From positions 35,004 to 99,003 of IMG/VR virus record IMGVR_UViG_3300037521_000345: a stretch of DNA of 64,000 nucleotides. One strand, written 5' to 3'. A program made the translations under genes and the position numbers. A model generated the notes under the pieces. It saw only the letters and a program-made list of their open reading frames with translations, was not told the DNA's origin and made no database searches. This DNA is from a virus. Of the stretch, positions 1,278 through 60,926 are shown piece after piece; position 1 is the first letter of the stretch; every line of letters begins with the position of its first letter.

Positions 1278-4200
1278 ATGATTAAATTTCAATCTTTAGT
1301 TCAATATTCAAGAGTAGTTGATGGAGTTCGTTTCTTTTCAGATAAGGATAGACCGTTCGTATTATTTTATTTCTCCGAGAATTCAACTCTATATGAAGAT
1401 TATCCTAAAATGAATTTAAGAAGAATAGATGCAAGATATATAGTTGTTCCAATAACCCAGATACCTGTCTCTAGATTAACGGGCGATCAAAGAAAAGTTT
1501 ATAAATCTTTTGGTTTACTTCCATTTCAATCAAATCAAGTATATCCCTTAAATGCAAATATTATATTCGATACCAGTAAATATGTTTCCTTGATAGATAA
1601 GATGTATAAACCAACAACATATAGACAAAGAGCAGGTTTTCTTCTAAATAATTTTCTTTATAAATCATTTAATTCGTTTCCTGATAACTATGAAAAAGTT
1701 CTAATTTATACTGTTGATGTTAATAAACCAATCAATTCGTTTATAAATCGAAAGATTTTTCCTATATTAAGAACTATGAAAGGAGATGAAATTTCATTTG
1801 ATCATATGCTTATGGCATTGATTGGAGAGTCGTCAACTAGATATAGACTATTAGTTAAAGACAGAAACTATAAATTTGCAAGAGTTTCTCAATATATAAG
1901 AAAAGTTAAAATGATTAGTTCAGATGATGAGAAAGAACAAGAAGTTAAAACAGCAACGAACTCATTTGATGAGAAAGATTCTAAAGTTAAAACAGCAATT
2001 CAAAACTATTTAAATAAAAATGCTAAAGATCTTGAGAAAGTTTCTAATAATGAACTTGATAAAACAGAAAGAGATAGATTAACAATAGCTTCTATCTTAT
2101 ATAAATTAACAGGAGATTTTCAAAAGTCTCAAAGACTTGCAAAAGCTATTCCTAAAAAAAGTATTAAAACTGCAACTGAAAAGATAAGTCGTTTATATAA
2201 AGATGACTTATTAACAGGTGAAAAAGCTGTTAGTCTTAGTGAATCATATATTGTTCAGGGAATAAATGTTTCCAGGGTAGTTCAAAATAAAACACCAGAG
2301 CATATATTTGACAAAAGAAGAATTGACTTTCAAACAAATTTAAAAAAGGATATGTCAAATGCTTTTAAAGTTTTAGAAAAAGGAAACGTTCCTATTAAAT
2401 TTAATTCATTTAAAATTACTCATAAAAAAGGAAGAGCTGGAGAACTTAAAAAATCAGATGTTTCAATTATAACTGTAAGTATAACAGATGCAGCAGGAAA
2501 GAATCAAACATTTGAGTTTGAAATTCCACAGATTGATCCTGACTCTGGAACATTTAGAGTTAATGGTCAGCGCAAATGTTTAATTAATCAAATAGTGTTG
2601 ACTCCAATAAGTTTTCCTAAACCTTATGATTCCAAATTTGAGAGTTCATATGCAAGATTCCATATCTATAGTAAGAAGACAAAGAGATTGTCGTATCTAG
2701 AAGCATACATGGGTTCCTTCCGCCTACCCTTGATGATACTGTTATCATATTGTTTTGGATTTGAAAAAACAGTTAAAAAATTAGGATTACAATATGAAAT
2801 TGTAAAAGATAAACCTAATAAGGATGTAGTCTTTACAGAAGTTCCTTCTTCATATATGGTATTTAAAAATTTAGATACTGATTTAAAAAAGGAAATGGTA
2901 ACATCATTCACGCACGCTAAAATTAATCAATACAACATTAAAAAAGATTTTTTATCAAAAGATTATTTTGTAGAGTTGATTATACAAATGACTGGACGTG
3001 TCGATTCAACATATCTGATAAATAATAATATTGATTATATCGTTGATCCAGTTGCAAAACAAATTTTAGTTAATCAATTATTACCATATAAATTAGAAGA
3101 TATTATGCATTATATGGCAACTAAATCTGTTGATGGTTATGTTCAAGAAAGAAATGATATTAAATATCAAAGAATTAGAAATTCAGAAATTTTAGTTCAT
3201 TTAGCACAAAAACAATTTCTTAGTTCTTATACTGAATATAAAGAACAGTTTTTATCAGGAAATAAAGATGCTAAATTTAATTTTCCTCCAGGAGTTATAT
3301 TAAGTCAATTTACTAACTTAGAGATAGTTCAAAATATGGAGTATGCAAATCCAGTTGAAGAGATGGCAACAATTACAAAGATTTCTCCAGTTGGAAAAAC
3401 AGTTGGAGGTATTCCAGATAAGGAAGGATTAAATCTTCAAGCTCGAAATGTTCATAGATCATATTTTGGAAATATTGATCCGGTGGATACAGCAGAAGGT
3501 GGTAACATTGGGGTAACCCAACAGTTGACAGTGGACGCATATTTAACATCCTCCCGTGGATTGTTTGGAATTAAAGATTTAAAAAATGATGAAGGAGCTG
3601 GAATATTATCTACAACACTTTCAATGGTTCCATTTATTGAAAACAATGAAGGTGCAAGAATGATAATGGCAGGTAATCAAGGAAAACAAATGTTACCTTT
3701 AAAAAATCCAGAACCTCCTATAGTTCAAACAGGATATGAGTCATTACTTTCAAATGTTTTGTCTAATAATTTTATCAAGAGATCACCTTGTGCTGGAAAA
3801 GTGACAAAAATTACTGGAGATTTTATTGAAATAGCTTGTAATAAAGGTTCTAAAAAGAAAGTTGTTATCACACCAGTTCAATTAAAATCAGGAGCTGGAA
3901 AAAATACATTGAGCACATTTAAACCATCTGTTGAGGTTGGACAATCAGTTAAAAATAAGCAAGTAATTGCAGAGGGAAGTTGTATTTCTGGCGGAACTAT
4001 TTCATTAGGAAGAAATCTTGCTACTTGTTATATGCCTTATCAAGGATATAATTTTGAAGATGGTCTTGTAATAAATGAACGATTAGTATCTGATGATAAA
4101 TTAACTTCTTTACATGGAATTGATGTTGAGGCAACAGTTGATCGTAAAGATAGAATTTTACATATTATTGATATTGGAGCTAAAACTAAAAAGGGTGACC

Positions 4201-5342
4201 CTCTAATAAGAAAGACAGCAGGTGAAATTGAAGAACTATTAGGATTTCAAGAAGAAGAGGAAGAAGGAGTTGATGTATATGAGGGTCAAATAATTACAAA
4301 AAGTCCAGGTGGTCATGTTGTTGATATTGACGTATTTTCTAATATTGATATAGATTCTTTTCCTTCCATTAAAAAGTTAGTTGAAAGAACTAATAAAAAA
4401 TATAAAAAACCTACTAAAGAAAAATTTACAACTAGAGGGGTTTCAATTAAAGGGATATTAATTATATTTAGAATTGAACAAGAGTTAAAAATTGGAGTGG
4501 GAGATAAACTCTGTAACCGATATGGAAATAAAGGTATTATATCTTTAGTTCAAAAAGATGAATTAATGCCAAGAACACCTTGGGGTGAAACAGTTGATAT
4601 TATTATGAATCCTCTTGGAGTTACTGGTCGAATGAATATAGGTCAAATATATGAATTGTATTGTGGTCTTATCTCTAAAGAAGTAGCAAATAGAATGGTT
4701 AAATTGAGCAAAGCTCAAGGCATTGCATTGATGAAAGCTGTAATAACAAGACTTGATAATACAAAAAATAAAAAAATTAGTACATCATTGATTGCTACAA
4801 TGACTGCAATGAGCGATGTAAAATATAAAAAGATGTTAGAGCAAATTCAAAAAGATAAGTTTATACCAATAGTTATTCCTCCATTTCAATCTCCTAAACA
4901 TAAAAGTATTTTAGAAGTATTAAAATTATTAAAATTAAAAACAGGATATAAATTAAAACTTCCAGAGTATAATACAAAAACTCAAAATGCGGTTCCATTT
5001 GGATATGAATATGTTTCTAAATTAGAACATATTTCAGATGCTAAATTACATGCTAGATCAACTGGTCCAACAACTGGAAAAGTTGGTCAACCAACTGCTG
5101 GTAAAAGAAAAGAGGGTGGGCAAAGAATAGGAGAAGGAGATACATGGGCATTAACAAGTTATAATTGTCCTACAATATTATCTGAACTCTTTGGACCTAT
5201 GTCTGATGACTTTGTATCTAAAAATGAAATGATGTCAGAAATTATACAAAATGGAAGAACAGATTTTAAAGAAACAAAAATGTCTCCAACTAGAGATTTA
5301 TTAAAAGCATATTTTATTTCTTTAATGCTAGGAGGTCAATAA
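1278..5342 (+). CDS. RNA polymerase beta subunit (first RNAP set), with long N-terminal extension
   Basis: 1354 residues, about as long as E. coli RpoB. Core motifs are in the C-terminal two thirds: 'GYNFEDGLVINERL', the lysine/arginine-rich 'GDKLCNRYGNKGIIS' near residue 1075, 'MNPLGVTGRMNIGQ' near 1110 and the C-terminal clamp motif 'GGQRIGEGDTWAL'. The first roughly 400 residues do not look like RpoB and hold a charged, low-complexity stretch (near 215-245) with two similar 'VKTA' segments, a possible linker or processing region. It ends by overlapping the next start (TAATG). The extension is lacking in the second beta (39250). By analogy with phiKZ-group virion polymerases this could be the packaged enzyme; that part is inference. 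Confidence 0.93.
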   Translation: MIKFQSLVQYSRVVDGVRFFSDKDRPFVLFYFSENSTLYEDYPKMNLRRIDARYIVVPITQIPVSRLTGDQRKVYKSFGLLPFQSNQVYPLNANIIFDTSKYVSLIDKMYKPTTYRQRAGFLLNNFLYKSFNSFPDNYEKVLIYTVDVNKPINSFINRKIFPILRTMKGDEISFDHMLMALIGESSTRYRLLVKDRNYKFARVSQYIRKVKMISSDDEKEQEVKTATNSFDEKDSKVKTAIQNYLNKNAKDLEKVSNNELDKTERDRLTIASILYKLTGDFQKSQRLAKAIPKKSIKTATEKISRLYKDDLLTGEKAVSLSESYIVQGINVSRVVQNKTPEHIFDKRRIDFQTNLKKDMSNAFKVLEKGNVPIKFNSFKITHKKGRAGELKKSDVSIITVSITDAAGKNQTFEFEIPQIDPDSGTFRVNGQRKCLINQIVLTPISFPKPYDSKFESSYARFHIYSKKTKRLSYLEAYMGSFRLPLMILLSYCFGFEKTVKKLGLQYEIVKDKPNKDVVFTEVPSSYMVFKNLDTDLKKEMVTSFTHAKINQYNIKKDFLSKDYFVELIIQMTGRVDSTYLINNNIDYIVDPVAKQILVNQLLPYKLEDIMHYMATKSVDGYVQERNDIKYQRIRNSEILVHLAQKQFLSSYTEYKEQFLSGNKDAKFNFPPGVILSQFTNLEIVQNMEYANPVEEMATITKISPVGKTVGGIPDKEGLNLQARNVHRSYFGNIDPVDTAEGGNIGVTQQLTVDAYLTSSRGLFGIKDLKNDEGAGILSTTLSMVPFIENNEGARMIMAGNQGKQMLPLKNPEPPIVQTGYESLLSNVLSNNFIKRSPCAGKVTKITGDFIEIACNKGSKKKVVITPVQLKSGAGKNTLSTFKPSVEVGQSVKNKQVIAEGSCISGGTISLGRNLATCYMPYQGYNFEDGLVINERLVSDDKLTSLHGIDVEATVDRKDRILHIIDIGAKTKKGDPLIRKTAGEIEELLGFQEEEEEGVDVYEGQIITKSPGGHVVDIDVFSNIDIDSFPSIKKLVERTNKKYKKPTKEKFTTRGVSIKGILIIFRIEQELKIGVGDKLCNRYGNKGIISLVQKDELMPRTPWGETVDIIMNPLGVTGRMNIGQIYELYCGLISKEVANRMVKLSKAQGIALMKAVITRLDNTKNKKISTSLIATMTAMSDVKYKKMLEQIQKDKFIPIVIPPFQSPKHKSILEVLKLLKLKTGYKLKLPEYNTKTQNAVPFGYEYVSKLEHISDAKLHARSTGPTTGKVGQPTAGKRKEGGQRIGEGDTWALTSYNCPTILSELFGPMSDDFVSKNEMMSEIIQNGRTDFKETKMSPTRDLLKAYFISLMLGGQ

Positions 5343-5938
5343 TGAGTGGGTTAGAAGCTTTATGCGGTGATTTAATCATTCCACCTGAAATGGATAACTA
5401 TGAAGAAGATGTTGATAAATATCATGATCTCGCCAGTTTCAGGTATGCTGCTCTTGATATAATAAATGTAGTTGGAAAAATTGACTTTAAAGAACTATAT
5501 ATTGTTCAAATGGATACTATTAAAAAACAAACAATGTATGTACAGAGAGTATTTCTTATTGAAATGCTACAAAAGATAAGTGAAATTTATGATTGGGAAT
5601 TTCCTGATGAATGGAGTTTAGTTGATACTTCATATCAACAAGAACAATTATATAAGTTTATAGAATTTATTGAATTTGATAATTATAGATTTTTATCCTA
5701 CGTTTGGAGATTTTTATTAGATGATACTACTAAACTTATAAGATTCGATATTGATAATTTTTGTAAAAAAAATGTTATGAAGATAATTAAAGAGACAGAA
5801 GAACAGTTAGAAACTCATTTTCAAAGCAAGATGATTACTATTTTTCTTAGAACATATTACAAAGAGAAGTTCATTGAATGGTTTAGTTTAATGAGTAGGA
5901 GATATAAAGTAGAAATAATTTCTGAACTTTATGAATAA
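5342..5938 (+). CDS. hypothetical protein, 198 aa
   Basis: Not recognised. Start is the ATG overlapping the beta stop (TAATG), with AGGAGG seven bases upstream. The protein is acidic and predicted mostly helical, rich in aromatic residues, without Cys clusters, signal peptide or membrane segment. Being translationally coupled to the beta gene, it may be an accessory subunit or assembly factor of the first polymerase, as giant-phage polymerases have a non-bacterial extra subunit; nothing in its sequence proves this. Confidence 0.75.
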   Translation: MSGLEALCGDLIIPPEMDNYEEDVDKYHDLASFRYAALDIINVVGKIDFKELYIVQMDTIKKQTMYVQRVFLIEMLQKISEIYDWEFPDEWSLVDTSYQQEQLYKFIEFIEFDNYRFLSYVWRFLLDDTTKLIRFDIDNFCKKNVMKIIKETEEQLETHFQSKMITIFLRTYYKEKFIEWFSLMSRRYKVEIISELYE

Positions 5939-6213: not shown

Positions 6214-6247
6214 TTTAAAAAATACATCTATATATATTAATAACTGA
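6214..6247 (+). promoter_or_regulatory. promoter-like element, copy 1 (phage RNAP promoter candidate)
   Basis: A 34-base AT-rich sequence, TTTAAAAAATA, one variable base, ATCTATATATATTAATAA, one variable base, TGA. It recurs with only two differences at 63296-63329. Both copies lie in non-coding DNA just upstream of a transcription unit: here 25 bases before the first hairpin RNA. The core resembles the AATATATTA-type early promoters known for phiKZ-group virion polymerases. Identification as a promoter is inference from position and repetition. Confidence 0.6.
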
Positions 6248-6998: not shown

Positions 6999-8510
6999 GT
7001 GCCAGGAGAGTTAGGATTAATTGATTCAGGTATATTGCAGTTTGCTCCAAAGGGAGCTTATTATGAAGGAAAAGATGAGCAATATAATGCCATCAATAGC
7101 ATGTGGGAAAGTCTATTTAAATATGATAGAACTTTATTTTCTTTGCTAATGTTGTTAAATGGAACAGGTTTTGCAAAGGGATCAATGTCTCACATCTTAT
7201 TATCGAATCCATTAGAGGAATCCAAACTTCCAGTATTAGATAACCTACCTTCCCATTTTGAGAAGGATATTATAAACTATGCTCTTTATAAGGAGAGAAC
7301 TCCAAGAGCATTGAAAAATTTATTAATGTTAACAGGAGCAGAAGGGCACAGTAAAGTTAATAATTCTAGAACAAGAAAAATGATTTTAGAATTTATATTC
7401 AATCGAGATAATAATAATCTTGATAATCTTGCTGTGAATTATAAAGGCAAACTTCAAACGCTGATTACACATGCTCTTGGAAAACAAGATCTAGCAAAAA
7501 TTCTTGGTGGTGACAAAAAATCATTTGAAAAATTCATTGGAAAATATAATAGACATTCTTTTCCTGTAGTTCTTCATATATTCAATATGGATATTCCAAC
7601 TGTGGGAGCTTACTTTCCAATGATTGAAAAATATTATAAACTTCGAAACGCAGCACAAGAGAAAAATATTACAGAATTTAAAAAATTAATGAAGGGCATG
7701 CCAGAAAGAACAGTCATGGGTATGAGGAATTTATATAAAGTTAACATTCCTATATCTGAATTAAAAGATGAAACTACCAAATCACAAAAGGATAGAATTC
7801 AAGGACAGGCAGCAGCTAAAAGAGCTGGAACAAAGATAGATATTGATTATAAAAAACAAGATATCTATGACTTATTTAAATTTCTATATTTTAAAATCAA
7901 AAACAATGATGGTGAGGATTTTAATAAAATATTATATGCCATTGATCACGTTGCAGGCAAACTTCCTAAAATAGATATTGGAGAATGTGTAGTAGTTATG
8001 GATGCTTCACATTCAATGATGGGAAGTGATGAAAGACCAATGCATCCATTTCTAACTGGACTATCTATTACTGCAACTCTCAAAAATATAAGAGAGTATA
8101 TATATGTTGGAGGAGAAACAGCTAAAATGGAAGGTAATGATTTTCCAGAAATTGTAGTTCCTTGCAATAGTACAGATTTATGGAGAGGATTGATCAAAGC
8201 TGTTAAAACAGGTGTTGAAAATATAGTTATCATTTCAGATGGTTATGAAAACACCATCAAAGGAATGTTCAAACACGTATATGATCACTTAAAAAAGAAT
8301 GGATATAAGTTCAAAGTAACTCATATCAATCCTGTATTTTCAGCTTCATCTGTTAATGGTTCAACAAGAAAATTAGCAGATGATATTAAATCTATGCCAG
8401 TAGGAAACTATAAGTATTTAGAAACAGAAGTTATTTTTTCTAGACTTGTAGAGGATAAGGAAATGGTTAAAAAAATATTAATCTCAAAATATAGAAATTT
8501 ACTTCAATAA
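6999..8510 (+). CDS. TROVE/vWA-domain protein, Ro60-like RNA-binding protein
   Basis: 503 residues, GTG start chosen because AAAGGAG lies seven bases upstream. The first roughly 300 residues look like a helical-repeat TROVE domain ('RKMILEFIFNRDNNNLDNLA' around 125-145). The C-terminal third is a von Willebrand A domain with the MIDAS motif DASHS near residue 335 and a later 'IIISDGYEN'-type strand. Ro60 proteins bind Y RNAs and misfolded RNAs and take part in RNA quality control; some mycobacteriophages are known to carry them. The adjacent upstream array of hairpin RNAs supports the call. TROVE assignment is by pattern, not a search; a different helical-repeat/vWA protein is the alternative. 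Confidence 0.72.
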   Translation: MPGELGLIDSGILQFAPKGAYYEGKDEQYNAINSMWESLFKYDRTLFSLLMLLNGTGFAKGSMSHILLSNPLEESKLPVLDNLPSHFEKDIINYALYKERTPRALKNLLMLTGAEGHSKVNNSRTRKMILEFIFNRDNNNLDNLAVNYKGKLQTLITHALGKQDLAKILGGDKKSFEKFIGKYNRHSFPVVLHIFNMDIPTVGAYFPMIEKYYKLRNAAQEKNITEFKKLMKGMPERTVMGMRNLYKVNIPISELKDETTKSQKDRIQGQAAAKRAGTKIDIDYKKQDIYDLFKFLYFKIKNNDGEDFNKILYAIDHVAGKLPKIDIGECVVVMDASHSMMGSDERPMHPFLTGLSITATLKNIREYIYVGGETAKMEGNDFPEIVVPCNSTDLWRGLIKAVKTGVENIVIISDGYENTIKGMFKHVYDHLKKNGYKFKVTHINPVFSASSVNGSTRKLADDIKSMPVGNYKYLETEVIFSRLVEDKEMVKKILISKYRNLLQ

Positions 8511-8527: not shown

Positions 8528-9499
8528 ATGTCAATATTGAAAACATTAGGATTTACAAATCTTAATGCTGGAACCGTTCAAGTTGTGGATGAAATGACAG
8601 TAGTGCCCTTAATTAGTGAAGATTTAGGACAAGTTGCTGAACCATTTTCATTGAAATTCAGACGAACAAACACTTATGGTTCCATGATTTATGAGAATTT
8701 AGATAAGGAATCTCCTGCGATCATTCCCAATAATATTATGGTGAGAGGATTGAGTGCACAGGATCACGCAATGGCAGGATCAGGAGTGGTTAAAGCTGAA
8801 AAATCAAAAACATTCAATAATGCTTGCTGTATTGAATCAAGTCAAGGTGGATATCTAGGTGAAGAAAATAATGAATATGATATCTTGCCTGTTCAGCTTC
8901 GTAAGAAACTTATTCCATTAGATATAAGAAATAAAAAAAGTTATGATAAATTATGGCCAGAAATTACAGCATGGTTGAAAGGTACTATTGATGTATCTCC
9001 TCGTTTCTCAAGTGCCCATCTAAGATATTTCTATGATGATCCTGAAATAAAGAAATCTCTTGAAACATTCTCCGCTGAATTTGAACCTGTATTAAATCAA
9101 ATCGGTGCTATTATATTATTTACAGATAACATTGTTGGTATAGAAGTTATGCCAACTCTTTCACATTGGTATTATTACTGGAAATTATTAATTCGTGGAT
9201 GTTATGGAGCTGAATTATTAAGACGTAAAAAATTAAATATAATTAAACCAGCTAAATTGAAACTTCCAAAACTTCCAAAAGATATTGATCAGATATCTTT
9301 AGTTGGCGATACTTATACAGATGGTATTCGTCAAAACATTATTAAAAAATTAGACACTATTAATTTGAAAACAACTTCAACTATTATAGAAAAAGTTGAA
9401 GATATTAATATTATATTATTAAACAGTGAATCAGGTGGTAGCGGTGGAGATTTGATTACTCAAAAAGATAAACCAATATATCTTTCTATAGTGATGTAA
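8528..9499 (+). CDS. Ro60-linked companion protein, 323 aa (possibly ARPP-1/DUF6569-like)
   Basis: Follows the Ro60-like gene by 17 bases with AGGGAGGA before the ATG, so cotranslated. Residues about 60-115 have the pattern '...QDHAMAGSGVVKAEKS...CCIESSQGGYL', similar to what I recall of ARPP-1-type domains, which occur in prokaryotic conflict and stress operons; this resemblance is weak. A Gly/Ser-rich tail (SGGSGG) precedes the C-terminus. No membrane segment. The role is unknown; context suggests it acts with the Ro60-like RNP. Confidence 0.6.
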   Translation: MSILKTLGFTNLNAGTVQVVDEMTVVPLISEDLGQVAEPFSLKFRRTNTYGSMIYENLDKESPAIIPNNIMVRGLSAQDHAMAGSGVVKAEKSKTFNNACCIESSQGGYLGEENNEYDILPVQLRKKLIPLDIRNKKSYDKLWPEITAWLKGTIDVSPRFSSAHLRYFYDDPEIKKSLETFSAEFEPVLNQIGAIILFTDNIVGIEVMPTLSHWYYYWKLLIRGCYGAELLRRKKLNIIKPAKLKLPKLPKDIDQISLVGDTYTDGIRQNIIKKLDTINLKTTSTIIEKVEDINIILLNSESGGSGGDLITQKDKPIYLSIVM

Positions 9500-35761: not shown

Positions 35762-35942
35762 AGAATTTATAAATCAACATGAATCACAAATTACAAAAAA
35801 AGATGCACAAATTATCATTAAATCTTTAATGCCATTTATTGATGAAATGGTATCAGAAAAAGTAAAATATCATTTTAAATTATTAGCAAATCATTTACTA
35901 GATACATTAAAATCTACAGAGGAGAAATTAAAAGATGCCTAG
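35718..35942 (+). CDS. hypothetical helical protein, 74 aa
   Basis: Start taken at the ATG at 35718 with AAGGGAG upstream, inside the end of the E2-like gene (44-base overlap). Product is Lys/Glu-rich and fully helical in appearance. Its end overlaps the beta' start by eight bases, so it bridges the Ubl cassette and the second RNA polymerase operon. Confidence 0.6.
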   Translation: MEKHPLDEYIQLKIEEFINQHESQITKKDAQIIIKSLMPFIDEMVSEKVKYHFKLLANHLLDTLKSTEEKLKDA

Positions 35943-38619
35943 AATTCTTAACTATAATGAATTTTGTGAACAATTACAGGATGTTCCGTCATTAAAAGTA
36001 ATAGCAAAAAAAAAGTTTCATCCTGAAGGTCTATTTTCTGAACAAATTTTTGGACCAGTAAAAAATTATACTTGTCAGTGTGGTATCTATTACGGACCAT
36101 CCAATGTAAAAACAGGAAGTAAATGTGATCTATGTAAAGTAGATATTGTTAATAGTGATGTAAGACGAACAAGATTTGCGAAAATAGTTTTACCATTTCC
36201 AATAGTCAATCCTTTATTTTATGATTTATTAGTTGAAATAGGTGGAAAGAATTTAAAATCAGCATTAGATGAGTTGATGAAAAATGAAAAAAGTTTTATG
36301 TATAGTGATGGTGTTGAGCATGTGGTTACATCGGATGAATCAAAAAGACCAAGAGAAGGAACTATCTATGAAAGAACAGATGCAATTTATAAATTAGTTA
36401 AAGATATTGCCACAGGATTAGCAAATGAAGGAATTGAAGAGTGGAAAATTGTTCTTGACAATATTGATAATCTATTAACTGACAAAGTAATTGTATTACC
36501 TCCAGATCTAAGACCAGCATCAAGAGGTGGAGGAGGTAAGCATTTAATGGATAAAATCAATAGATATTATGTTCAAATTTTAACTAATAAAAGTCTGATG
36601 CAAGGAACAATTTTAAATATCCAAAGAGATAAGAATCTATATTATACATACTTTAAATTGATACAAAAAAATGTAAACGAATTATATAACAGAATTCTCG
36701 AAAAGATGGCAAAAAAGGAAGGTTTAATTCGTGGAAATATTTTAGGAAAGAGAATAGATTTTTCAGGTCGAGCAGTAATTACACCTGATCCTTCTCTAAC
36801 ATTAACCGAATGTAAACTCCCTTACTTTATGGCATTGGAGATATATAAACTTCCAATTGCCAAACGAATAATAGAGTTAGAAAAATTTAAAGTATTAAAT
36901 GATGCTCTTGACTTTATTGATAATTGCATTGAATTTAAAAAATTTGATCTCTTTGAAATATGTAAAGATACAGTTGAAGGACAAATATGTATATTAAATA
37001 GACAACCATCGCTACATAGACTTGGAATGCTAGGTTTTGAAGTTCTAATTACATCAGATCAAGTTATTAAAATTCATCCATTAGTATGTCCTCCGTTTAA
37101 TGCAGATTTTGATGGAGATCAAATGGCAGTCTATGTTCCTATTACAGAAGGAGCTAAAAATGAAATATCTGAAAAAATGCTTGCAATTAATAATTTAAGC
37201 AGTCCATCAAATGAAAATTTAACAACCACTCCTAGTCAAGATATTATTTTAGGAATTTATTTCTTGACTAAAGGTATCTTTGATGGACAATTAGATGATG
37301 AGACAGGTCTATCTATTTTTAATAGCACGCTTCCAGAGAATTATCCAATCATTGATGAAACTGTTAATGAGAAGAAATTATTAGATATTTTAAATGATAT
37401 AAAAGATAATTATTCAAATGATGAAATTATTAGAGTTTTAGATACTATTAAAACAGTTGGATTTACATATGCAACATTGTTTGGTTGTACTATGTCATTA
37501 GAAAATTTTCAATCTAAAAAATTAACAGATTTAAGAGATAAAATATTTACAAAAAATACAATTAGAGATCAATTAATCGCATTATCAAATAAAGGAATTA
37601 CAAAAGCATTAAGAGATAATTTTGAATATTCATATATGATTGAATCTGGTGCCAGAGGTAGTTGGGATCAAGTTAAACAAATTATTATGACCCGAGGATT
37701 TGTATCGAATTTCGATGGAGAGATTCTTCCAACTCCTATTAAACATAACCTAGTTGAAGGTTTAACTGAAAAAGAATTTTTCTTTTCAACATATGGATGT
37801 CGAAAGGGACTCCTTGATATTGCATTAAATACAGGGACATCAGGATATCTTTCAAGAAAATTAATTTTCACTTGTGCTAATTTACAAATTGATACAAATT
37901 TAGATGACTGTGGAACAACTGATCTTCTTGAAGTTTATGTTAAAACCGAAAGAAAAGCAAGAATGTTAATCAATAAATATCAATCAACTGAAACAGGTTT
38001 GGAAGTAATTACTAAACAAAATTATAAAAATATAATTGGAAAAACAATTTGGATACGAAGTCCAATATTATGTAAGTCGCCTAAACTATGTTGCAAATGC
38101 TATGGAGATTTATATAAAAAACTCAATAGTCGATTTGTTGGAATCATAGCTGCACAGACTCTTGGTGAACGAGGGACTCAATTGGTTCTTAGAACTTTTC
38201 ATACATCAGGATCAGCTGTTATAAAAGGTGAATCTCAAGAAGATGGTTCATTAAAGCAAAAAGATATTATTGGGGATTTAGCAACTGTATCACAAATTCT
38301 ACATAAATTCAAAAATAAAATATATACTGATATAGTTCAAGAATTATTTGAAGTATATAATAAAGACATTTATCATGTCCATTATGAATGTGTTGTTGCT
38401 CAATTAATGTGGAAAGATTATAAGAAATGGAGACTTATAAAAGATAGACATTTATATGCTTCAGATTATTATTCAATACAGTCAGTTCCAAATCAAGAAA
38501 GTTGGATATTAGCAATGGCATTCTCAAATCCTAAAAAGAGTATCTTACATGGAATTTTAAATGAGGGAAAATACTCAGGTATAATGGATAAAATTCTAAA
38601 AGGGGAAAAAATAGTATGA
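35935..38619 (+). CDS. RNA polymerase beta' subunit, complete (second RNAP set)
   Basis: 894 residues in one chain. N-terminal 'GLFSEQIFGPVKNYTCQCG' with a four-Cys zinc site (CQCG ... CDLC), 'NILGKRIDFSGRAVITPDP', 'LNRQPSLHRLGM', catalytic NADFDGDQMAV near residue 390, trigger/bridge region 'GCRKGLLDIALNTGTSGYLS', a second Cys cluster 'CCKCYGDL' and 'TLGERGTQLVLRTFHTSG'. Bacterial RpoC is about 1400 residues, so this is a compact version. Unlike the split subunits of phiKZ-like phages it is unbroken. Forms the second polymerase with the beta at 39250. Confidence 0.95.
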   Translation: MPRILNYNEFCEQLQDVPSLKVIAKKKFHPEGLFSEQIFGPVKNYTCQCGIYYGPSNVKTGSKCDLCKVDIVNSDVRRTRFAKIVLPFPIVNPLFYDLLVEIGGKNLKSALDELMKNEKSFMYSDGVEHVVTSDESKRPREGTIYERTDAIYKLVKDIATGLANEGIEEWKIVLDNIDNLLTDKVIVLPPDLRPASRGGGGKHLMDKINRYYVQILTNKSLMQGTILNIQRDKNLYYTYFKLIQKNVNELYNRILEKMAKKEGLIRGNILGKRIDFSGRAVITPDPSLTLTECKLPYFMALEIYKLPIAKRIIELEKFKVLNDALDFIDNCIEFKKFDLFEICKDTVEGQICILNRQPSLHRLGMLGFEVLITSDQVIKIHPLVCPPFNADFDGDQMAVYVPITEGAKNEISEKMLAINNLSSPSNENLTTTPSQDIILGIYFLTKGIFDGQLDDETGLSIFNSTLPENYPIIDETVNEKKLLDILNDIKDNYSNDEIIRVLDTIKTVGFTYATLFGCTMSLENFQSKKLTDLRDKIFTKNTIRDQLIALSNKGITKALRDNFEYSYMIESGARGSWDQVKQIIMTRGFVSNFDGEILPTPIKHNLVEGLTEKEFFFSTYGCRKGLLDIALNTGTSGYLSRKLIFTCANLQIDTNLDDCGTTDLLEVYVKTERKARMLINKYQSTETGLEVITKQNYKNIIGKTIWIRSPILCKSPKLCCKCYGDLYKKLNSRFVGIIAAQTLGERGTQLVLRTFHTSGSAVIKGESQEDGSLKQKDIIGDLATVSQILHKFKNKIYTDIVQELFEVYNKDIYHVHYECVVAQLMWKDYKKWRLIKDRHLYASDYYSIQSVPNQESWILAMAFSNPKKSILHGILNEGKYSGIMDKILKGEKIV

Positions 38620-38837
38620 AAGAACTAGAGCAAGAATTGCTTGACCGTTATGCAGACTACAGAGATCCAGATTCTAACTGGATAAAAACAAATCTACCAG
38701 ATGAGTTAAATGATACTGGAGCAAAAGATTTTATAATAAAACCTCATGATGCAAAATCAGTTAGTCAGGTTAATTCATTTACAATATATTATGAGGTTAA
38801 AGGAAAAAGAATTGTTAAATTTGTAAGGAGAATATAA
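38616..38837 (+). CDS. hypothetical protein, tandem paralogue 1, 73 aa
   Basis: Overlaps the beta' stop (ATGA). Acidic, with 'IKPHDAKSVSQVNSFTIYYE' near the C-terminus, a segment that is repeated in recognisable form in the next protein. Not recognised otherwise. Lying inside an RNAP operon, a small accessory role is possible. Confidence 0.6.
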   Translation: MKELEQELLDRYADYRDPDSNWIKTNLPDELNDTGAKDFIIKPHDAKSVSQVNSFTIYYEVKGKRIVKFVRRI

Positions 38838-39064
38838 TGAAAGAATTAAATAATCAAGAATTAAGAGATGAAATAATTGAACTTTTCCTTAGTGATTCAA
38901 TAGATAATTGGACCAAAAGTCCATCAGTTTATGATCTATCTAATTGTGGTCAATTAGATATTGAAATAGAACCAGACGATGCAAAAAGTATTGATGAAAT
39001 AAAACAGTTTAAAATAATAGAAACTGTAATGGGATCAGAAACACTAGAATTTACAAGGAAATAA
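38837..39064 (+). CDS. hypothetical protein, tandem paralogue 2, 75 aa
   Basis: Starts at the last base of the previous stop. Shares the start MKEL and the segment 'IEPDDAKSIDEIKQFKIIE' with paralogue 1, so the two arose by duplication and then diverged strongly. No motif. Confidence 0.6.
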   Translation: MKELNNQELRDEIIELFLSDSIDNWTKSPSVYDLSNCGQLDIEIEPDDAKSIDEIKQFKIIETVMGSETLEFTRK

Positions 39065-39066
39065 TA

Positions 39067-39246
39067 ATGAGAGATCCGAATAGAATACATGAGATGTTAA
39101 GAGTAATATCGAAGGTCTGGTATAAACATCCAGACCTTCGATTAGGTCAATTAATATTAAATGCAGTTACAATTAATCCAAATCTGTATTATATGGAAGA
39201 TGAACAGCTATTAGAATATTTAAAAAAGACTTATAAGGAGGAGTAG
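39067..39246 (+). CDS. small protein, 59 aa
   Basis: ATG two bases after the previous stop. The product contains 'VWYKHPDLRLGQLILNAV' and 'YYMEDEQLLEYL', a pattern shared by short uncharacterised bacterial and phage proteins (PDLRLGQLI...ED). The coding sequence encloses a perfect 13-base inverted repeat (39108-39120 / 39130-39142). It is followed directly by the beta gene. Confidence 0.62.
   Translation: MRDPNRIHEMLRVISKVWYKHPDLRLGQLILNAVTINPNLYYMEDEQLLEYLKKTYKEE
39108..39142 (+). repeat. perfect 13-bp inverted repeat inside a coding region
   Basis: ATCGAAGGTCTGG (39108-39120) and CCAGACCTTCGAT (39130-39142) around the loop TATAAACAT. It is the strongest short hairpin in the RNAP operon and lies between beta' and beta. 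It has no T-run, so an RNA-processing site or attenuator is more likely than a terminator. Confidence 0.6.
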
Positions 39247-39249
39247 AAT

Positions 39250-42200
39250 TTGAAACTAAAAAATCCAGTTTTTAAAATTCAAAGTGAAGATAATAATATC
39301 TTCACAATTCGTAAAAAGGACCAAGAGCTTATACTACCAGTGACAAAAGTTATACTCCAACCTGCAATTGATTTAGGATTTACACTAAATGAACTTACAT
39401 TAAAAGAGTCTAGATTTTCATCAGGAGAGTTATCAAAAACAGTCAAACAAAATCTCACAATCAAGTTACAAAAAGGAACTTCTAATATTGATTTAAGTTT
39501 ACACATTCCTAAATTGATAGATGATAATTATATTATAATTAATGGTCGTAGAAAAATTCCTCTATTTCAGTTATTTGATATTCCAATTGTTACGAGAGGA
39601 GAAAATATAAAACTACGAACCAATGTGGCAACATTAACAATTTTAAAAGATAGAGAACAACCATTTGTTAAAGTTAGTTTTTTAGGAAAAAAAGTTCCTC
39701 TATCAATATTAATGTTTGCGTATTATGGAATTGAAGGAATGATAAACAATAAGGAATTAGATCTTCCAAATGTTAAAATTCAAGATTTAGATGATAATAT
39801 TTTAATGGATCTATTAATAAAGGAGTGTAAACTTATCTATGATGAATTACAAAGCAACACCACACAAGATGATTTTATTTTAGAAATAGGAAGAGCATAT
39901 TCAAAATATAATTCTAAATCTAAAGGTCATGATATTATTTATGCTCTCGATCTAATTCCACAGGTTGATATATTTACAAAAACTTTTTTGACAACAGGAT
40001 CATTATTAGGCGAATTAATTTATACAATTAAGACAGGCGATGTGAGCGATATATTATTTACAAATAAAAGAGTTAGATGTTTTGAGTATATGATTTTTTC
40101 AAGGATATCAAAAATTATATTTGATTTATGCTTTTCAAATAGAACAGCTAAACAACCAAAATTCAACACAAATACAACTCAAATATTAAGTGAATGTAAC
40201 GTTTCAGATATTGTTCAATTTGATTTTTCAATAAATCCTATTGAGGAATTAACAAAATTATCAAGGATAAGTCTTCTCGGTCCAGGAGGATTTAAAAGAG
40301 AAAATATTCCAAAACATTTAAGAGATATATGCCCCACAATGTTTGGTCGTATTTGTCCCGTAGACACCCCAGACCGCGATAATTGCGGAGTTCTACAGAA
40401 CTTAATACCTAATGTCAAGTTAGACCAACATCTCCGATTTACGAATGAAATATGCGAGAAACAACCCATATCAATACCTGTATCTCTCACTCCATTTTGT
40501 GAGCATGACGATCAAACAAGATTGCAAATGGCATCATCACAAATGAGACAATCTATTATGTTAAAAGAATTTGATCAACCAATGATTAAATCAGGTTGTG
40601 AAGGATTATATACAGATTATACACAGTTCATTAAACGTGCTAAAAAGAATGGGGAAGTCACTCATCTAGATGAGAAGTATTTGATGGTTGTATATGATGA
40701 TAAAACAATTGATATCTTTGATGTTGAATATAGAAATATCTATGTTGAACATATGGATATTATGAAACTCTATGTTAACGTAGGTGATAAATTTAAAGCT
40801 GGGGATATATTAGCAGAAAGTAATTTTGTTCAAGATGGCGAAATTAATTTTGGTAGAAATCTATTAACAGGAGTGATGATTTATTATGGATGGAACTATG
40901 AAGATGGAATTATCATATCTGATAAATTAATACAAAATGATGCTTTTACATCAGTCCATTTTAAAGATTTATCATTTGTAATCCCTCCAATTAAAGTTTT
41001 GATATCTCTATCAGAAAATGAATACAGACCATTACCAAAAGCTCTTGAAAAAATTGGTCAAGGAGATACTTATGCAATTTTAAAAACTCTTTCACTTGAT
41101 GATTTTTATTCTGTTTTTACAGAAAGCTCTAAATTAGTAGCAGAAAAATCATATATAATACCCAAGATAAAAATATTTGCAAATGAATGGAATACAGATA
41201 TTCCTGAATATAAAGAGTGGGTAGAAAAGACTATTGAAACACAACAGAAAAAAGAGTCAATCTTTAGAACAATAATTAAAGAAAAGTTACCAAGAGAACA
41301 AGCAATAAAATTTATAAGAGAAAGAGATTTAGAACTTTTCTCATTCGTTGGTAAATATAAAATTAAGAAAGAAAAAATAAATGGAATATATGTAGAGATA
41401 TCTGGAATTCATTTTAGATCAATCAAGGTTGGAGATAAGATCGCAAATAGACATGGGAATAAAGGAGTTATATCTAAAATATTACCTCAAGAGATGATGC
41501 CACAATTAGAGGATGGTAGACATTTAGATGTTTGTATTAATCCATTAGGTATTATATCTAGAATGAATATTGGTCAACTATTTGAACTACATCTAACAAT
41601 GTCATTATATGATCTACAACAAAATGCATTACAAATGTTAAAGAAAGAAAAACCACAAGATCAGATCAAAAATTATTTAACTGGATATATTCAAATTGTT
41701 GATAAAACAAAAGATAGTTGGTATACAAAACAATTTGTAGAACAGCTTCCAGATATTATAGATATTCCCTTTATTAAGGCATTTTCATTAATACAACCTC
41801 CATTTGAATCTTGTCATTCAGAGGATTTAGAAAAAGCATTAAAATATACAAATACAGGATTTACATATAAACTATATGATCCAATTGTAAGAAAGAATTT
41901 TTTAAATCAAATTTCAGTTGGATATATATATTTTTTAAGAATGGTTCATATAGCAGAAGAAAAGTTGGCAGCAAGAGGAATTGGTTCGTATGCAAAACGA
42001 ACATTACAACCACTGGGTGGGAGAAAAAATAAAGGTGGTCAGAGATGTGGTGAAATGGAAACTGCTTGTATTATCGGACATGATGCTCCAAAGAATTTAT
42101 TTGAATTCTTAACAACAAAATCAGACTGTATAGATTTAAAAAATGATTACATTAGAAATTATATTAATACTGGACGAGTAGTAAAAACTGAAGATTTAGA

Positions 42201-42279
42201 TCCAATGCCAGAATCAGTTAAATTATTAAATTCATATTTAACAGTATTAGGGGTAGATTATCATGGCAGTTCAAAATGA
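39250..42279 (+). CDS. RNA polymerase beta subunit, complete (second RNAP set)
   Basis: 1009 residues. TTG start, supported by AAGGAGGAG eight bases upstream and no nearby ATG. Motifs: 'GPGGFKRENIPKHLRDI', 'FGRICPVDTPDRDNCG', 'YGWNYEDGIIISD', 'GDKIANRHGNKGVIS', 'INPLGIISRMNIGQ' and 'GGRKNKGGQRCGEMETACI'. It lacks the 350-residue N-terminal extension of the first beta, so the two polymerases are clearly distinct. Unsplit, in contrast to many giant-phage beta subunits. No alpha, omega or sigma gene was recognised in the window. Confidence 0.95.
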   Translation: MKLKNPVFKIQSEDNNIFTIRKKDQELILPVTKVILQPAIDLGFTLNELTLKESRFSSGELSKTVKQNLTIKLQKGTSNIDLSLHIPKLIDDNYIIINGRRKIPLFQLFDIPIVTRGENIKLRTNVATLTILKDREQPFVKVSFLGKKVPLSILMFAYYGIEGMINNKELDLPNVKIQDLDDNILMDLLIKECKLIYDELQSNTTQDDFILEIGRAYSKYNSKSKGHDIIYALDLIPQVDIFTKTFLTTGSLLGELIYTIKTGDVSDILFTNKRVRCFEYMIFSRISKIIFDLCFSNRTAKQPKFNTNTTQILSECNVSDIVQFDFSINPIEELTKLSRISLLGPGGFKRENIPKHLRDICPTMFGRICPVDTPDRDNCGVLQNLIPNVKLDQHLRFTNEICEKQPISIPVSLTPFCEHDDQTRLQMASSQMRQSIMLKEFDQPMIKSGCEGLYTDYTQFIKRAKKNGEVTHLDEKYLMVVYDDKTIDIFDVEYRNIYVEHMDIMKLYVNVGDKFKAGDILAESNFVQDGEINFGRNLLTGVMIYYGWNYEDGIIISDKLIQNDAFTSVHFKDLSFVIPPIKVLISLSENEYRPLPKALEKIGQGDTYAILKTLSLDDFYSVFTESSKLVAEKSYIIPKIKIFANEWNTDIPEYKEWVEKTIETQQKKESIFRTIIKEKLPREQAIKFIRERDLELFSFVGKYKIKKEKINGIYVEISGIHFRSIKVGDKIANRHGNKGVISKILPQEMMPQLEDGRHLDVCINPLGIISRMNIGQLFELHLTMSLYDLQQNALQMLKKEKPQDQIKNYLTGYIQIVDKTKDSWYTKQFVEQLPDIIDIPFIKAFSLIQPPFESCHSEDLEKALKYTNTGFTYKLYDPIVRKNFLNQISVGYIYFLRMVHIAEEKLAARGIGSYAKRTLQPLGGRKNKGGQRCGEMETACIIGHDAPKNLFEFLTTKSDCIDLKNDYIRNYINTGRVVKTEDLDPMPESVKLLNSYLTVLGVDYHGSSK

Positions 42280-49555: not shown

Positions 49556-49583
49556 AATTTGGAACAAATATAAAAGGAGTTTT

Positions 49584-54954: not shown

Positions 54955-56241
54955 ATGGCGCACTATGGTGATTTGACGAAAATAGATTTTATTATTGGTA
55001 TGCCCCCAATTACAACATCCACGGGGGATCCAATACACACTCAAAGATCTGCTGAATTATTAAGAAATGCAATGCCCACAGCAACTATTTATCCAGGTAT
55101 TCCATCGTTTGAATCTGGTATAGATCTATTTACAAGAATACCTGTTTTTGATACTAAAGGTTTTCATCCTGATGCTAAAAAAGTTAATACTACCTATTAT
55201 CTACCACTGTTACAAGAACATGGTTATACATTAGATACTGAAATACATAATAATGGAGTTAAACTTGCATACTTAGCAGATAACTTTCCAACAGATACAT
55301 TTACTAATGAATATGGAGAAAATTTCTTACAAAAATTTACAGATGTAGCTTCAGAAGGTGCAGCATCATTAGCACAAATGTTTGGAGCTAGAAATGTAAC
55401 AGATTTAGCTTCTAGAGCGACAACAGTTGCACAAAAGCAAGGGGGTGCCATTGGTACAGTTGGAGATATGGCACGTAGAGCAGGAGATTATATTAATAAA
55501 CTTGGTGGAATGTTTTCTGAATATAGTTCAGCAGGAGCTAGAATGGGAAAAATGATTGGTTCACTTGCTGCTGGTTCAAGAATTGATTTCCCAATGGTTT
55601 GGAAATCAAGCTCATTTCAACCATCATATACAATGACAGTTAGATTATATAATCCAGATCCTACCAGCAAATCAATGACAAAGAAATATATTATAGGACC
55701 TATTGCAGCAATAATGTTATTGGGAATTCCAATATCAGAAGATGGAAGTACATACAGTTGGCCATATCTTCATAGAGTTGATTCTCCTGGTATATATGAA
55801 TTAGATCCTGCTTATATTCAAAATATCACAATTATAAAAGGTGGGGATCAACAACAGATTGCTTATAATCAAAGATTGGGAATAGTTGATGTTAGAATTG
55901 ATTTTGGAAGTTTATTTAGTAGTATGCTCGCATCTAATAAAAGGACAACAAAAACAAGACCAACTTTAAGAAAATATTTAAGATCCATGGAAAATCATAC
56001 AAATGCATGGACTACTACAGGTGGAAGTCTTAAAAATAAAGCAGCTGTATCACAACAAAAACCAGTAGAACCAGTGATTAAAGGACCTGGAAGAAATCAA
56101 GCAGCATTTACTCAATCAGTTTCTATACTTGATGCTGCATCACCAGAGGAACCACCTGATAGAGTTACTCAGGCAGTCAAGGATATTGGAAACGCAATTA
56201 TAGATCAAATTCCGAAAGGAATTAAAATCAGTACCTCTTAA
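54955..56241 (+). CDS. probable tail/baseplate structural protein, 428 aa
   Basis: AAGGAGG precedes the ATG. An Ala/Gly-rich helical middle (about 140-205) is followed by a beta-rich domain with 'SYTMTVRLYNPDP', 'SWPYLHRVDSPGIYELDPAY' and 'GIVDVRIDFGSL'. The second half resembles baseplate-tube junction proteins in general look only. It converges on and overlaps the next minus-strand gene by four bases. Called structural by context. Confidence 0.6.
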   Translation: MAHYGDLTKIDFIIGMPPITTSTGDPIHTQRSAELLRNAMPTATIYPGIPSFESGIDLFTRIPVFDTKGFHPDAKKVNTTYYLPLLQEHGYTLDTEIHNNGVKLAYLADNFPTDTFTNEYGENFLQKFTDVASEGAASLAQMFGARNVTDLASRATTVAQKQGGAIGTVGDMARRAGDYINKLGGMFSEYSSAGARMGKMIGSLAAGSRIDFPMVWKSSSFQPSYTMTVRLYNPDPTSKSMTKKYIIGPIAAIMLLGIPISEDGSTYSWPYLHRVDSPGIYELDPAYIQNITIIKGGDQQQIAYNQRLGIVDVRIDFGSLFSSMLASNKRTTKTRPTLRKYLRSMENHTNAWTTTGGSLKNKAAVSQQKPVEPVIKGPGRNQAAFTQSVSILDAASPEEPPDRVTQAVKDIGNAIIDQIPKGIKISTS

Positions 56242-57350
56242 CACATAGTACTTCTAAATAATAACGTTAAATATGAGGCAAGAAATAAATTAACAATGAA
56301 TTGAGTTTGCGAGGTATACTTATTATACTGATCTGTTATTTTTAAATTATCTAAAACAACAAGTAATAAAACATTAACTTGCTGTTTGAAATAGACCGGA
56401 GCATTACTTCTTTTAACTGCCATTAAACTTCTCAAATATTTTTCATATCCACTTCCACATATTTGATTTGTGCTTCTTAATTCCTTCATGTATAAACCTA
56501 AAATCATTCTTACCTTATCAGAATACTCCACTTGTATCATTTCAGCAGCAATTAGTTCAGCAATAGAAGCTTTTACTTTACTTATTTTTTTAGCTTCAAG
56601 CAATGCCTTCTTATCAACTATTTTATATATAGTTAACTTTCTGATTGTCTCATCAACTTTCGCTTTTCCTCTTTCAAGAGTTCTATATTGATACGCATTA
56701 GCTTCATCATCGGGTGTATCAGTCTGTGTTTTAATTGCTTCACCCTTTTCTTTTGCTTTATAATAATTCTCAACAAAACTCTTCACACTCTGTGAGATTC
56801 TATGTCTTGATGCTCCAATAAATTCAATGATTCTATCTAAATCCCAATCCCTAATATATCTCTCATATTTTTTCTTTAACTCAGTTGATAGATAGTATAA
56901 ACTATTTGCTATAGTTTTTTCACGAACAAAAAGATGCGTTTTAGTTAACATATCAATTGTATATCTAAATATATCATCATTGCAGTATCTTAACTGTTTA
57001 TGCATTAAACGACCATATTGAAAAAACATATAATAAGCAAGAGTTGTTTTGAAGGCAGCAACATCTCTATGTAAAAGAAATAAATGCATAACAACAACTA
57101 AAAGATTCGTTGCAGGATCCTTCCATAATAACCAGGTTTCAGCTTTAGTTCCTTTATATTGTCTCTTGACAAATGCTTTAACTTCTTTATCCGTAAGTTT
57201 CATTGCTCTTAATATTTCATGATACGCTAACTTTGTTTTTGGATAATAACATGGTTCAGATAAAGCATCGAACTCTCTTGCTGCAAATCTGGTAATTGTT
57301 TTTTTGAGAAGTCTAATATCATATTGAGATTTTTCTATTAATTCTTTCAT
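56238..57350 (-). CDS. hypothetical helical protein in the baseplate operon, 370 aa
   Basis: Last gene of the minus-strand operon, overlapping the gp6-like gene by one base at its start. Strongly helical and basic, with a PEST-like 'TQTDTPDDEANAYQYRTLER' section near 215-235. Not recognised. Its place suggests an assembly factor or baseplate component. Confidence 0.65.
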   Translation of the reverse strand: MKELIEKSQYDIRLLKKTITRFAAREFDALSEPCYYPKTKLAYHEILRAMKLTDKEVKAFVKRQYKGTKAETWLLWKDPATNLLVVVMHLFLLHRDVAAFKTTLAYYMFFQYGRLMHKQLRYCNDDIFRYTIDMLTKTHLFVREKTIANSLYYLSTELKKKYERYIRDWDLDRIIEFIGASRHRISQSVKSFVENYYKAKEKGEAIKTQTDTPDDEANAYQYRTLERGKAKVDETIRKLTIYKIVDKKALLEAKKISKVKASIAELIAAEMIQVEYSDKVRMILGLYMKELRSTNQICGSGYEKYLRSLMAVKRSNAPVYFKQQVNVLLLVVLDNLKITDQYNKYTSQTQFIVNLFLASYLTLLFRSTMC

Positions 57351-59830: not shown

Positions 59831-59841
59831 AAGTCATTTCC

Positions 59842-60486
59842 TTATATAAAATAAAAACCACTATTATTATCAAATAATGTTTTTGTAGTTTCTCTTAAAC
59901 TTTCATTTTTTGATAAAAGTCTTGTCATAAAAGAAGCGTCATCAACAGTATGAATTTTTTTATCATAATCATAAAATGTGTATGTTTCTTGTACCTGTTG
60001 ATTTAGTTGAGTTTCTGTTACGCTTTGTTCCAAACTTACAATAATTTTCCAAAATACTCTATCAGCATTTACAGATTTTTCTACTCCACCAATATTGAAT
60101 AAAGGATATACATTATTGGTAGGTCTTAAATAATCCTGCTCTAATTTAAGTTTATCATTGGGTAAAGGAGTTATTCCATATGTACTGGGAATAACAAATG
60201 TACTATTATTCTCTTTAATATAACCAATATCTTGACCATCTAGAGGTGTGTTGATCTCATCAATATAATAGACTGGAAGTAGTAAAACTTTATTCCATCT
60301 TACTCCAGAGTATTCACCAACTCTATCATAAGAACCAGCAAAAACATTTTCATCTTCCCAAATAGTTTCATTTGTATCAATATGATAATATGTAGTTAAA
60401 AACGCAACAACATGCTTACTATAATAATCATATATTAAATTTTGATACTCATGAATGTAGTCATATATTCTTTCATATTTTTGCAT
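59842..60486 (-). CDS. probable baseplate protein, 214 aa (gp53-like position)
   Basis: Lies between the gp25-like and gp6-like genes, one base overlap with the former. Aromatic-rich, mixed fold, with 'YDRVGEYSGVRWNKVLLLPV' and a C-terminal 'DNNSGFYFI'. Not recognised by motif; in T4-like phages gp53 has a comparable size and role at the baseplate, which is why I mention it. Confidence 0.6.
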   Translation of the reverse strand: MQKYERIYDYIHEYQNLIYDYYSKHVVAFLTTYYHIDTNETIWEDENVFAGSYDRVGEYSGVRWNKVLLLPVYYIDEINTPLDGQDIGYIKENNSTFVIPSTYGITPLPNDKLKLEQDYLRPTNNVYPLFNIGGVEKSVNADRVFWKIIVSLEQSVTETQLNQQVQETYTFYDYDKKIHTVDDASFMTRLLSKNESLRETTKTLFDNNSGFYFI

Positions 60487-60926
60487 TATGTTTGTCCCTG
60501 TGCTGCTGAACCAGCTAATGTAGAACCATCAAATCGTACAGATAAAGTTCCCCGATCTCCATCATAGTCAATAATAATATCAATTTCAAAACCTTTTTTG
60601 TTAGAGATTAATCGAACTTCTACATCTTCAATACTTGCTCTATTGTCATATTTTTGTATTCTATATTCAATTTCAGTTTTTATTTCTTCTATAGTTTGAT
60701 CATTAACAGGTTGAAATATCATTAAATGTAAATCGCTTCCATATTCAGGATCATGCATATGAGTTCTTCTAGGAGTAATTAAAATATTATTCCACGACGA
60801 AATAATCACATCTAAATTACTTATTTTTTGAAAATCTCCTGCTGATGTTATCTTAGGGAGAAAGTCATGTAGTTTACCTTCGGAACCAGTAACTTCCTGT
60901 TTAAATCTATCTAATAAATTTGACAT
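60486..60926 (-). CDS. baseplate wedge protein, T4 gp25-like
   Basis: 146 residues. 'ILITPRRTHMHDPEYGSDLH' is the gp25 core (R...DPxYGs.L...), followed by 'EEIKTEIEYRIQKYDNRASI' and 'DVEVRLI' as in gp25/'lysozyme-like' baseplate proteins. Despite that name the family is structural. Start directly abuts the stop of the gene upstream on this strand. Confidence 0.9.
   Translation of the reverse strand: MSNLLDRFKQEVTGSEGKLHDFLPKITSAGDFQKISNLDVIISSWNNILITPRRTHMHDPEYGSDLHLMIFQPVNDQTIEEIKTEIEYRIQKYDNRASIEDVEVRLISNKKGFEIDIIIDYDGDRGTLSVRFDGSTLAGSAAQGQT

What the first reader, a model, noticed from the sequence alone, without database searches (positions are those of the whole stretch)
6214..6247. 34-base promoter-like sequence shared by two distant loci
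Seen: 32 of 34 bases identical between 6214-6247 and 63296-63329, both non-coding, both just upstream of plus-strand units (the RNA array; the small membrane protein). I found no third copy in the window. Known: phiKZ-group virion polymerases use short AT-rich early promoters with AATATATTA-like cores. Inferred: an early promoter, linking the Ro60/Y-RNA module and the membrane protein to early infection.
Basis: partly seen in the sequence, partly recalled or inferred. Interest (0 to 1): 0.7.

Follow-up and report, generated by a model that had tools for sequence, protein, structure and literature searches.

The report
Early promoter of unnamed jumbo phages
The repeated 34-base sequence is almost certainly the early promoter that a virus-packaged RNA polymerase uses to switch on the first genes of a little-known lineage of large bacterial viruses, and it can be read across the whole lineage together with a second, probably late, promoter.

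Summary
Confirmed and extended. The two copies match at 32 of 34 bases and are the only two in the window. The window is part of a 99-kb virus record that holds five perfect copies of the core, all on the + strand and all intergenic. The core CTATATATATTAATnnNTGA was found in 19 of 19 large related virus records. Most sites lie 30-60 nt before a ribosome-binding site and start codon. It has the architecture of the mapped AR9 early promoters (AAATATATATTAT-N5-TG+1). Most records long enough to judge encode two multisubunit RNA polymerases.

About 70% of sites stand back-to-back with a second element, AGAACAAAWTWWAAA. It precedes terminase, tail and virion-polymerase genes and contains the AACA of AR9 late promoters. 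In most relatives the early promoter precedes a distant relative of AR9 gp226, the specificity subunit of the non-virion polymerase. At 6228 it precedes a conserved array of hairpin and tRNA-like RNAs and a Ro60-like gene, an order kept in four phages. No transcription data exist here. The protein matches no TROVE profile, so 'Ro60' remains a structural guess.

The parts
6214..6247 (+). Copy 1 of the finding; conserved promoter unit is 6228-6247 (CTATATATATTAATAACTGA), predicted start of transcription at about G6246
63296..63329 (+). Copy 2; conserved unit 63310-63329 (CTATATATATTAATAATTGA), predicted start at about G63328
6270..6913 (+). Array of 7 hairpin RNAs behind copy 1; at least two carry tRNA-like arms (Rfam tRNA hit 6413-6482)
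   Evidence: tRNA 29.9 bits, gathering 29; z -2.3 to -5.1; an array stands at the same place in three other phages
6999..8510 (+). Ro60-like gene (503 aa: helical part plus a vWA-like part with DxSxS), first protein gene after the array
   Evidence: no TROVE/Pfam/PDB sequence match
8528..9499 (+). ARPP-1 domain protein in the same operon
   Evidence: PF20208, 2.3e-16
63386..63637 (+). Small protein (83 aa, hydrophobic segment) behind copy 2; GGGAGGAG ribosome-binding site just upstream, leader of about 58 nt
   Evidence: no Pfam family
63261..63277 (-). Second-class (late-like) element TTAGAACAAAATGTAAA, back-to-back with copy 2, 50 nt before the - strand gene 62737-63228
56238..63228 (-). Late-type gene run pointing away from copy 2: virion structural/tail-tube-like, baseplate hub, baseplate wedge genes
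49559..49575 (+). Late-like element TTGGAACAAATATAAAA 25 nt before the terminase large subunit gene (49584-51239)
   Evidence: (score 10.1, within the range of shuffle maxima; position is the argument)
5847..5863 (+). Late-like element TTAGAACATATTACAAA before the 85-aa gene 5951-6208; same place in G002, G006, G012, G016, G041 and G042
1278..5342 (+). RNAP1 beta subunit (1354 aa, unsplit); its beta' (1005 aa) runs from the record's upstream part to window 1245; virion-type by homology, late-like element upstream of the operon at record 32732
35935..42279 (+). RNAP2 beta' (35935-38619, 894 aa) and beta (39250-42279, 1009 aa), non-virion type by homology

Best explanation
The 34-base repeat is an early promoter of a two-polymerase jumbo-phage lineage. 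A virion-packaged multisubunit RNA polymerase (most likely RNAP1) enters with the DNA, recognises CTATATATATTAATnnNTGA without host sigma factor, and starts RNA at the G (or A) of the terminal TGA, typically about 45 nt before the first gene. In this genome it switches on five operons: a Dda-helicase/clamp-loader operon, a leader plus PfkB-kinase gene, a gp226-like specificity subunit gene, the hairpin-RNA array with the Ro60-like gene, and a small probable membrane protein. The gp226-like factor, made early, would then let the non-virion polymerase (RNAP2) use AGAACAAAWTWWAAA promoters before virion genes. Shown: sequence conservation, position, orientation, gene contents, homology of the polymerases. 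Inferred: which polymerase, start site, timing.
For: Five intergenic + strand copies only. 19/19 large related records carry it, mostly on one strand (19:0 in a 312-kb record, 12:0 in a 248-kb record), 119 sites against 7 for the reversed pattern. At least 117 hits against 2 for the reversed 20-mer in IMG/VR. 67% of 133 sites have a ribosome-binding site plus start codon within 200 nt against 10% of random positions, mostly 32-63 nt from the G. No -35 box. AR9's 34 annotated early promoters read AAATATATATTAT-N5-TG+1 (PMC5312081). Of 50 motif records 18 encode beta homologues; of the eight over 100 kb, six carry both a ~1370-aa and a ~1010-aa one. First genes behind it: helicase, tRNA nucleotidyltransferase, Q-like and small unknown proteins; first genes behind the opposite element: terminase, virion structural, tail. 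A gp226-like gene lies within 500 nt behind it in G000, G001, G002, G006, G012, G016 and G017; in AR9 the gp226 gene also lies behind an early promoter.
Against: No RNA data of any kind. The virion/non-virion assignment of RNAP1 and RNAP2 rests on distant homology with long branches (support 91/83); for the beta C-terminal half RNAP1 scores better to the AR9 non-virion subunit. The long + strand gene run from 42 to 91 kb of the record, which includes RNAP2, has no early motif closer than the one at 41231. Some large motif records (139 kb, 79 kb) show no polymerase gene, though they may be fragments.
Confidence: 0.9

Rival explanations
1. The motif is the middle or late promoter of the non-virion polymerase, not an early promoter.
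For: Both polymerases are phage-encoded and the motif alone does not name its enzyme; RNAP1 genes lie downstream of one copy.
Against: A separate element with the AACA of AR9 late promoters stands before terminase, tail and RNAP1 genes and back-to-back with this motif; the motif itself matches AR9 early promoters including TG+1 and precedes replication and gp226-like genes.
Confidence: 0.06
2. It is a host sigma-A type promoter used by the host polymerase for early genes.
For: It is AT-rich and contains a TATATT block; phage early genes are often read by the host enzyme.
Against: Outside the 20-mer there is no conserved -35 hexamer and the simple sigma-70 scan does not pick the site above shuffles; about 15 fixed bases are kept across diverged phages, which is not how host promoters look; the phages carry their own polymerases.
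Confidence: 0.03
3. It is a protein-binding or replication element (operator, origin iteron) and not a promoter.
For: Well conserved, repeated, AT-rich.
Against: Single directional copies, oriented with the following gene, with a fixed distance to ribosome-binding sites and at operon starts.
Confidence: 0.02

Closest known systems
AR9/PBS1 (Takahashivirus) virion-RNAP early promoters, AAATATATATTAT-N6-G(+1) (PMC5312081)
   Same: Extended AT-rich core with TATATATTA, TG at the start site, upstream of early operons and of the gp226 gene, at times divergent from non-early promoters of virion genes
   Different: First bases CTA instead of AAA, TTAAT instead of TTAT, spacing core-to-TG one base shorter; not yet tested by experiment
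AR9 late promoters, AACA-N6-T[A/G](+1), read by nvRNAP-gp226 (PMC5312081, PMC9209446)
   Same: The second element found here contains AACA and precedes virion genes
   Different: Here the element is longer and more regular (AGAACAAAWTWWAAA), so that it can be found from sequence alone; no T[A/G] at the AR9 spacing
phiKZ-group early promoters and polymerases (PMC7598289)
   Same: Early AT-rich motif near -10, two multisubunit polymerases
   Different: Here beta and beta' of both polymerases are single unsplit chains; no close named relative in 50,697 phage records (best hits about 20-38% identity)
Ro60/TROVE proteins with Y RNA, reported for some jumbo phages (PMC7824862)
   Same: Helical part plus vWA-like part next to structured RNAs with tRNA-like arms
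   Different: No TROVE profile match even at E 10 in the carrier genomes; the RNAs match no Y RNA family of Rfam

Membership tests
virion-RNAP early promoter of two-RNAP jumbo phages | conserved AT-rich core of about 10 nt or more near -10 | tested here: met
virion-RNAP early promoter of two-RNAP jumbo phages | conserved start-site signal (TG+1 in AR9) a fixed distance downstream | tested here: met
   TGA at fixed distance, T 0.91, G 0.73, A 0.92 with the core fixed; one base closer than in AR9
virion-RNAP early promoter of two-RNAP jumbo phages | located upstream of operons in intergenic DNA, oriented with the gene | tested here: met
virion-RNAP early promoter of two-RNAP jumbo phages | phage encodes a virion and a non-virion multisubunit RNAP | tested here: met
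   two beta and two beta' genes; same in relatives; which is which is only moderately supported
virion-RNAP early promoter of two-RNAP jumbo phages | transcription at once after infection, resistant to rifampicin and chloramphenicol | not testable with these tools
   uncultured virus
phiKZ-group jumbo phage (polymerase architecture) | beta and beta' each split into two or more polypeptides | tested here: not met
   beta 1354 and 1009 aa, beta' 1005 and 894 aa single frames
AR9 gp226 / phiKZ gp68 specificity subunit (record 31155-32594) | profile similarity to the gp226 family | tested here: met
   hhalign 77-81% probability, E about 1e-5 over 103-128 columns in matching position; reversed control 0.2%. 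Moderate, needs a structure
Ro60 (TROVE) protein | match to PF05731 | tested here: not met
Ro60 (TROVE) protein | HEAT-like ring plus vWA domain by structure | tested here: inconclusive
   model pLDDT 65.6, helices then an alpha/beta domain with DxSxS; fold search unavailable

The most novel reading that the evidence does not exclude
A large uncultured lineage of jumbo phages with two unsplit multisubunit polymerases uses a sequence-readable two-class promoter code, in which the virion polymerase makes, among its first products, both the specificity factor for the second polymerase and an array of tRNA-like and hairpin RNAs with a Ro60-like partner, so that a phage RNA-protein particle is an immediate-early takeover or counter-defence device.
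Probability: 0.5. Interest if true: 0.7.

Novelty: new member of a known kind. Interest (0 to 1): 0.52.

Why it matters
It gives a promoter map, early and probably late, for a whole lineage of phages known only from metagenomes, where expression timing cannot be measured. [quoted passage not shown] here a second class is visible because it stands back-to-back with the early one. It also ties an unusual RNA-array/Ro60-like module to the first minutes of infection, and the unsplit subunits make this lineage useful for asking how phage multisubunit polymerases arose.

Tried and rejected
Sigma-70 promoter reading: no -35 signal, no excess over shuffles. Chance repeat: rejected by shuffles, reversed control and relatives. 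Copies in genes: 11 of 133, mostly overlapping frames on the other strand. Assigning the 479-aa protein by a PDB profile search with two sequences gave nothing, and one gp226 sequence gave only 1.7%; it needed eight relatives against eight gp226 homologues. 'Ro60' by Pfam, PDB and genome-limited TROVE search: no match, and its bacterial relatives do not match TROVE either. Fold search failed once and was then switched off. No published mention of the motif was found in the held library.

Full report
OBSERVATION. The two stretches are as described: 32 of 34 bases identical, both on +, both outside genes, and no third close copy in the window. The window is record bases 35004-99003 of a 99,003-base virus record. 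The exact 15-mer CTATATATATTAATA occurs five times in the record, at 1142, 29830, 31093, 41231 (= window 6228) and 98313 (= window 63310), always on +. A weight matrix made only from other phages' sites gives exactly these five as outliers (29.9, 28.4, 28.4, 25.6, 15.5; next 7.2; six shuffled genomes never above 8.7), all intergenic.

FAMILY-WIDE CONSERVATION. With up to two mismatches, all 19 large motif-bearing records tested hold sites, 119 in all against 7 for the backward pattern; in a 312-kb record 19 of 19 and in a 248-kb record 12 of 12 lie on one strand. The consensus is CTATATATATTAAT-n-n-N-TGA. Of 133 distinct sites followed by NTRA, 11 lie in an open frame of 100 aa or more (random positions: 82%), and 89 have a ribosome-binding site plus start codon within 200 nt (random: 10%), typically 32-63 nt after the G. 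With the core fixed by the search, the following T, G and A still stand at 0.91, 0.73 and 0.92. No -35 element is conserved.

WHAT POLYMERASE. The record encodes two sets of large RNA polymerase subunits: RNAP1 (beta' 1005 aa, beta 1354 aa) and RNAP2 (beta' 894 aa, beta 1009 aa), each chain unsplit, both beta' with the catalytic NADFDGD. Of 50 motif records, 18 contain beta homologues; of the eight over 100 kb, six have both a ~1370-aa and a ~1010-aa one. No named phage is close: the best hits in 50,697 phage records are about 20-38% identical. In comparison with AR9, whose subunits are labelled virion or non-virion in its record, RNAP2 fits the non-virion subunits best and the RNAP1 N-terminal parts fit the virion subunits best; a beta' tree places RNAP2 with AR9 non-virion (91/83) and RNAP1 on the other side with AR9 and KTN4 virion subunits, with long branches. 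RNAP1 beta' also ends in a stretch matching a virion structural family.

COMPARISON WITH KNOWN PROMOTERS. AR9 early promoters mapped by dRNA-seq are AAATATATATTAT-(6N)-G+1 and are used without protein synthesis (PMC5312081). The 34 sites annotated in the AR9 record show TG at -1/+1, then mostly A. The motif here has the same TATATATTA core and the same TG, one base closer. The predicted start is therefore G6246 (or A6247) and G63328. That is inference.

SECOND PROMOTER CLASS. In 94 of 130 distinct sites AGAACA stands on the opposite strand within 100 nt upstream, mostly 22-50 nt away (7 expected). Aligned, these give AGAACAAAWTWWAAA. A matrix from those relatives finds in this record intergenic sites at 18594, 7989, 98264(-), 1102(-), 16844, 13565 and 32732, and a weaker one at the terminase gene (shuffles reach 15.5, so only the strongest are significant alone). 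Genes behind the early motif in 50 relatives are helicase, tRNA nucleotidyltransferase, Q-like and many small unknown proteins; genes behind the opposite element include terminase large subunits, virion structural and tail-tube proteins. Copy 2 of the finding shows this directly: early motif (+) before the small membrane protein, late-like element (-) at window 63261-63277 before a run of tail genes with baseplate hub and wedge. The late-like element also stands before the RNAP1 operon in G000, G002, G006, G012, G016, G041 and G042, as expected for a virion polymerase.

CASCADE. The gene at record 31155-32594 (479 aa) directly behind the early motif at 31093 has relatives in eight carrier records; an early motif with at most one mismatch lies within 500 nt upstream in G000/G001, G002, G006, G012, G016 and G017. 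Against the gp226 family (AR9, BpSp, Listeria, Staphylococcus and Yersinia phages) the profile match is 77-81% at E about 1e-5, in matching position, against 0.2% for reversed profiles. AR9 gp226 is the promoter-specificity subunit of the non-virion polymerase (PMC7598289, PMC9209446) and its gene, too, has an early promoter. The simplest reading is that early virion-polymerase transcription makes the factor for late transcription.

WHAT COPY 1 DRIVES. After copy 1 come seven hairpin RNAs (z -2.3 to -5.1; two with tRNA-like arms, one an Rfam tRNA match), then the 503-aa protein and an ARPP-1 protein. The order RNAP1 beta - small genes - early motif - RNA array - 503-aa gene is kept in G002 (68% identity), G016 (56%) and G006 (55%). 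In G002 the promoter is duplicated, with one RNA unit between the copies. In G012 and G041 the early motif stays at the same junction with other genes behind it. The 503-aa protein has a helical part and a vWA-like part with DxSxS, and distant relatives in varied bacteria, but no TROVE match. 'Ro60-like' is a working name.

LIMITS. Nothing here measures RNA. Counts come from related viruses and redundant collections. G001 is nearly the same virus as the window and is not independent.

Noticed in passing
window 63261-63277 (-); record 1102(-), 7989, 13565, 18594, 32732, 84562: A second, probably late, promoter class AGAACAAAWTWWAAA, back-to-back with the early motif in about 70% of relatives.
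   Followed up: yes
L013:13655-15094 (record 31155-32594): 479-aa protein, a distant relative of AR9 gp226 (non-virion polymerase specificity subunit), directly behind an early motif.
   Followed up: yes
L132:16404-16591: In relative G002 the early promoter is duplicated with one hairpin RNA unit between the copies.
   Followed up: partly
window 6999-9499; L188:4854-7483; L194-L216: A Ro60-like gene followed by a second gene as here also occurs in a 462-kb uncultured phage genome, and relatives of the Ro60-like protein occur in varied bacteria (Deltaproteobacteria, Planctomycetota, Cyanobacteria and others); none tested match TROVE.
   Followed up: partly
window 1278-5342, 35935-42279 and relatives: Both phage RNA polymerases have unsplit beta and beta' subunits, unlike AR9 and phiKZ.
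   Followed up: partly
window 6270-6913: Array of hairpin RNAs with shared GAAGACTTTATGTGATTTCAG / TTACAT..TACTTC strands, some with a tRNA-like insert; same type of array in G002, G006, G016.
   Followed up: partly
record 29848-30164 (L013): About 315-nt leader between an early motif and the PfkB-kinase gene; could hold another RNA. Not examined.
   Followed up: no
window 63606-64000: Protein cut by the window end with CKNKCAICYQ, a radical-SAM-like CxxxCxxC motif, in the operon behind copy 2.
   Followed up: no
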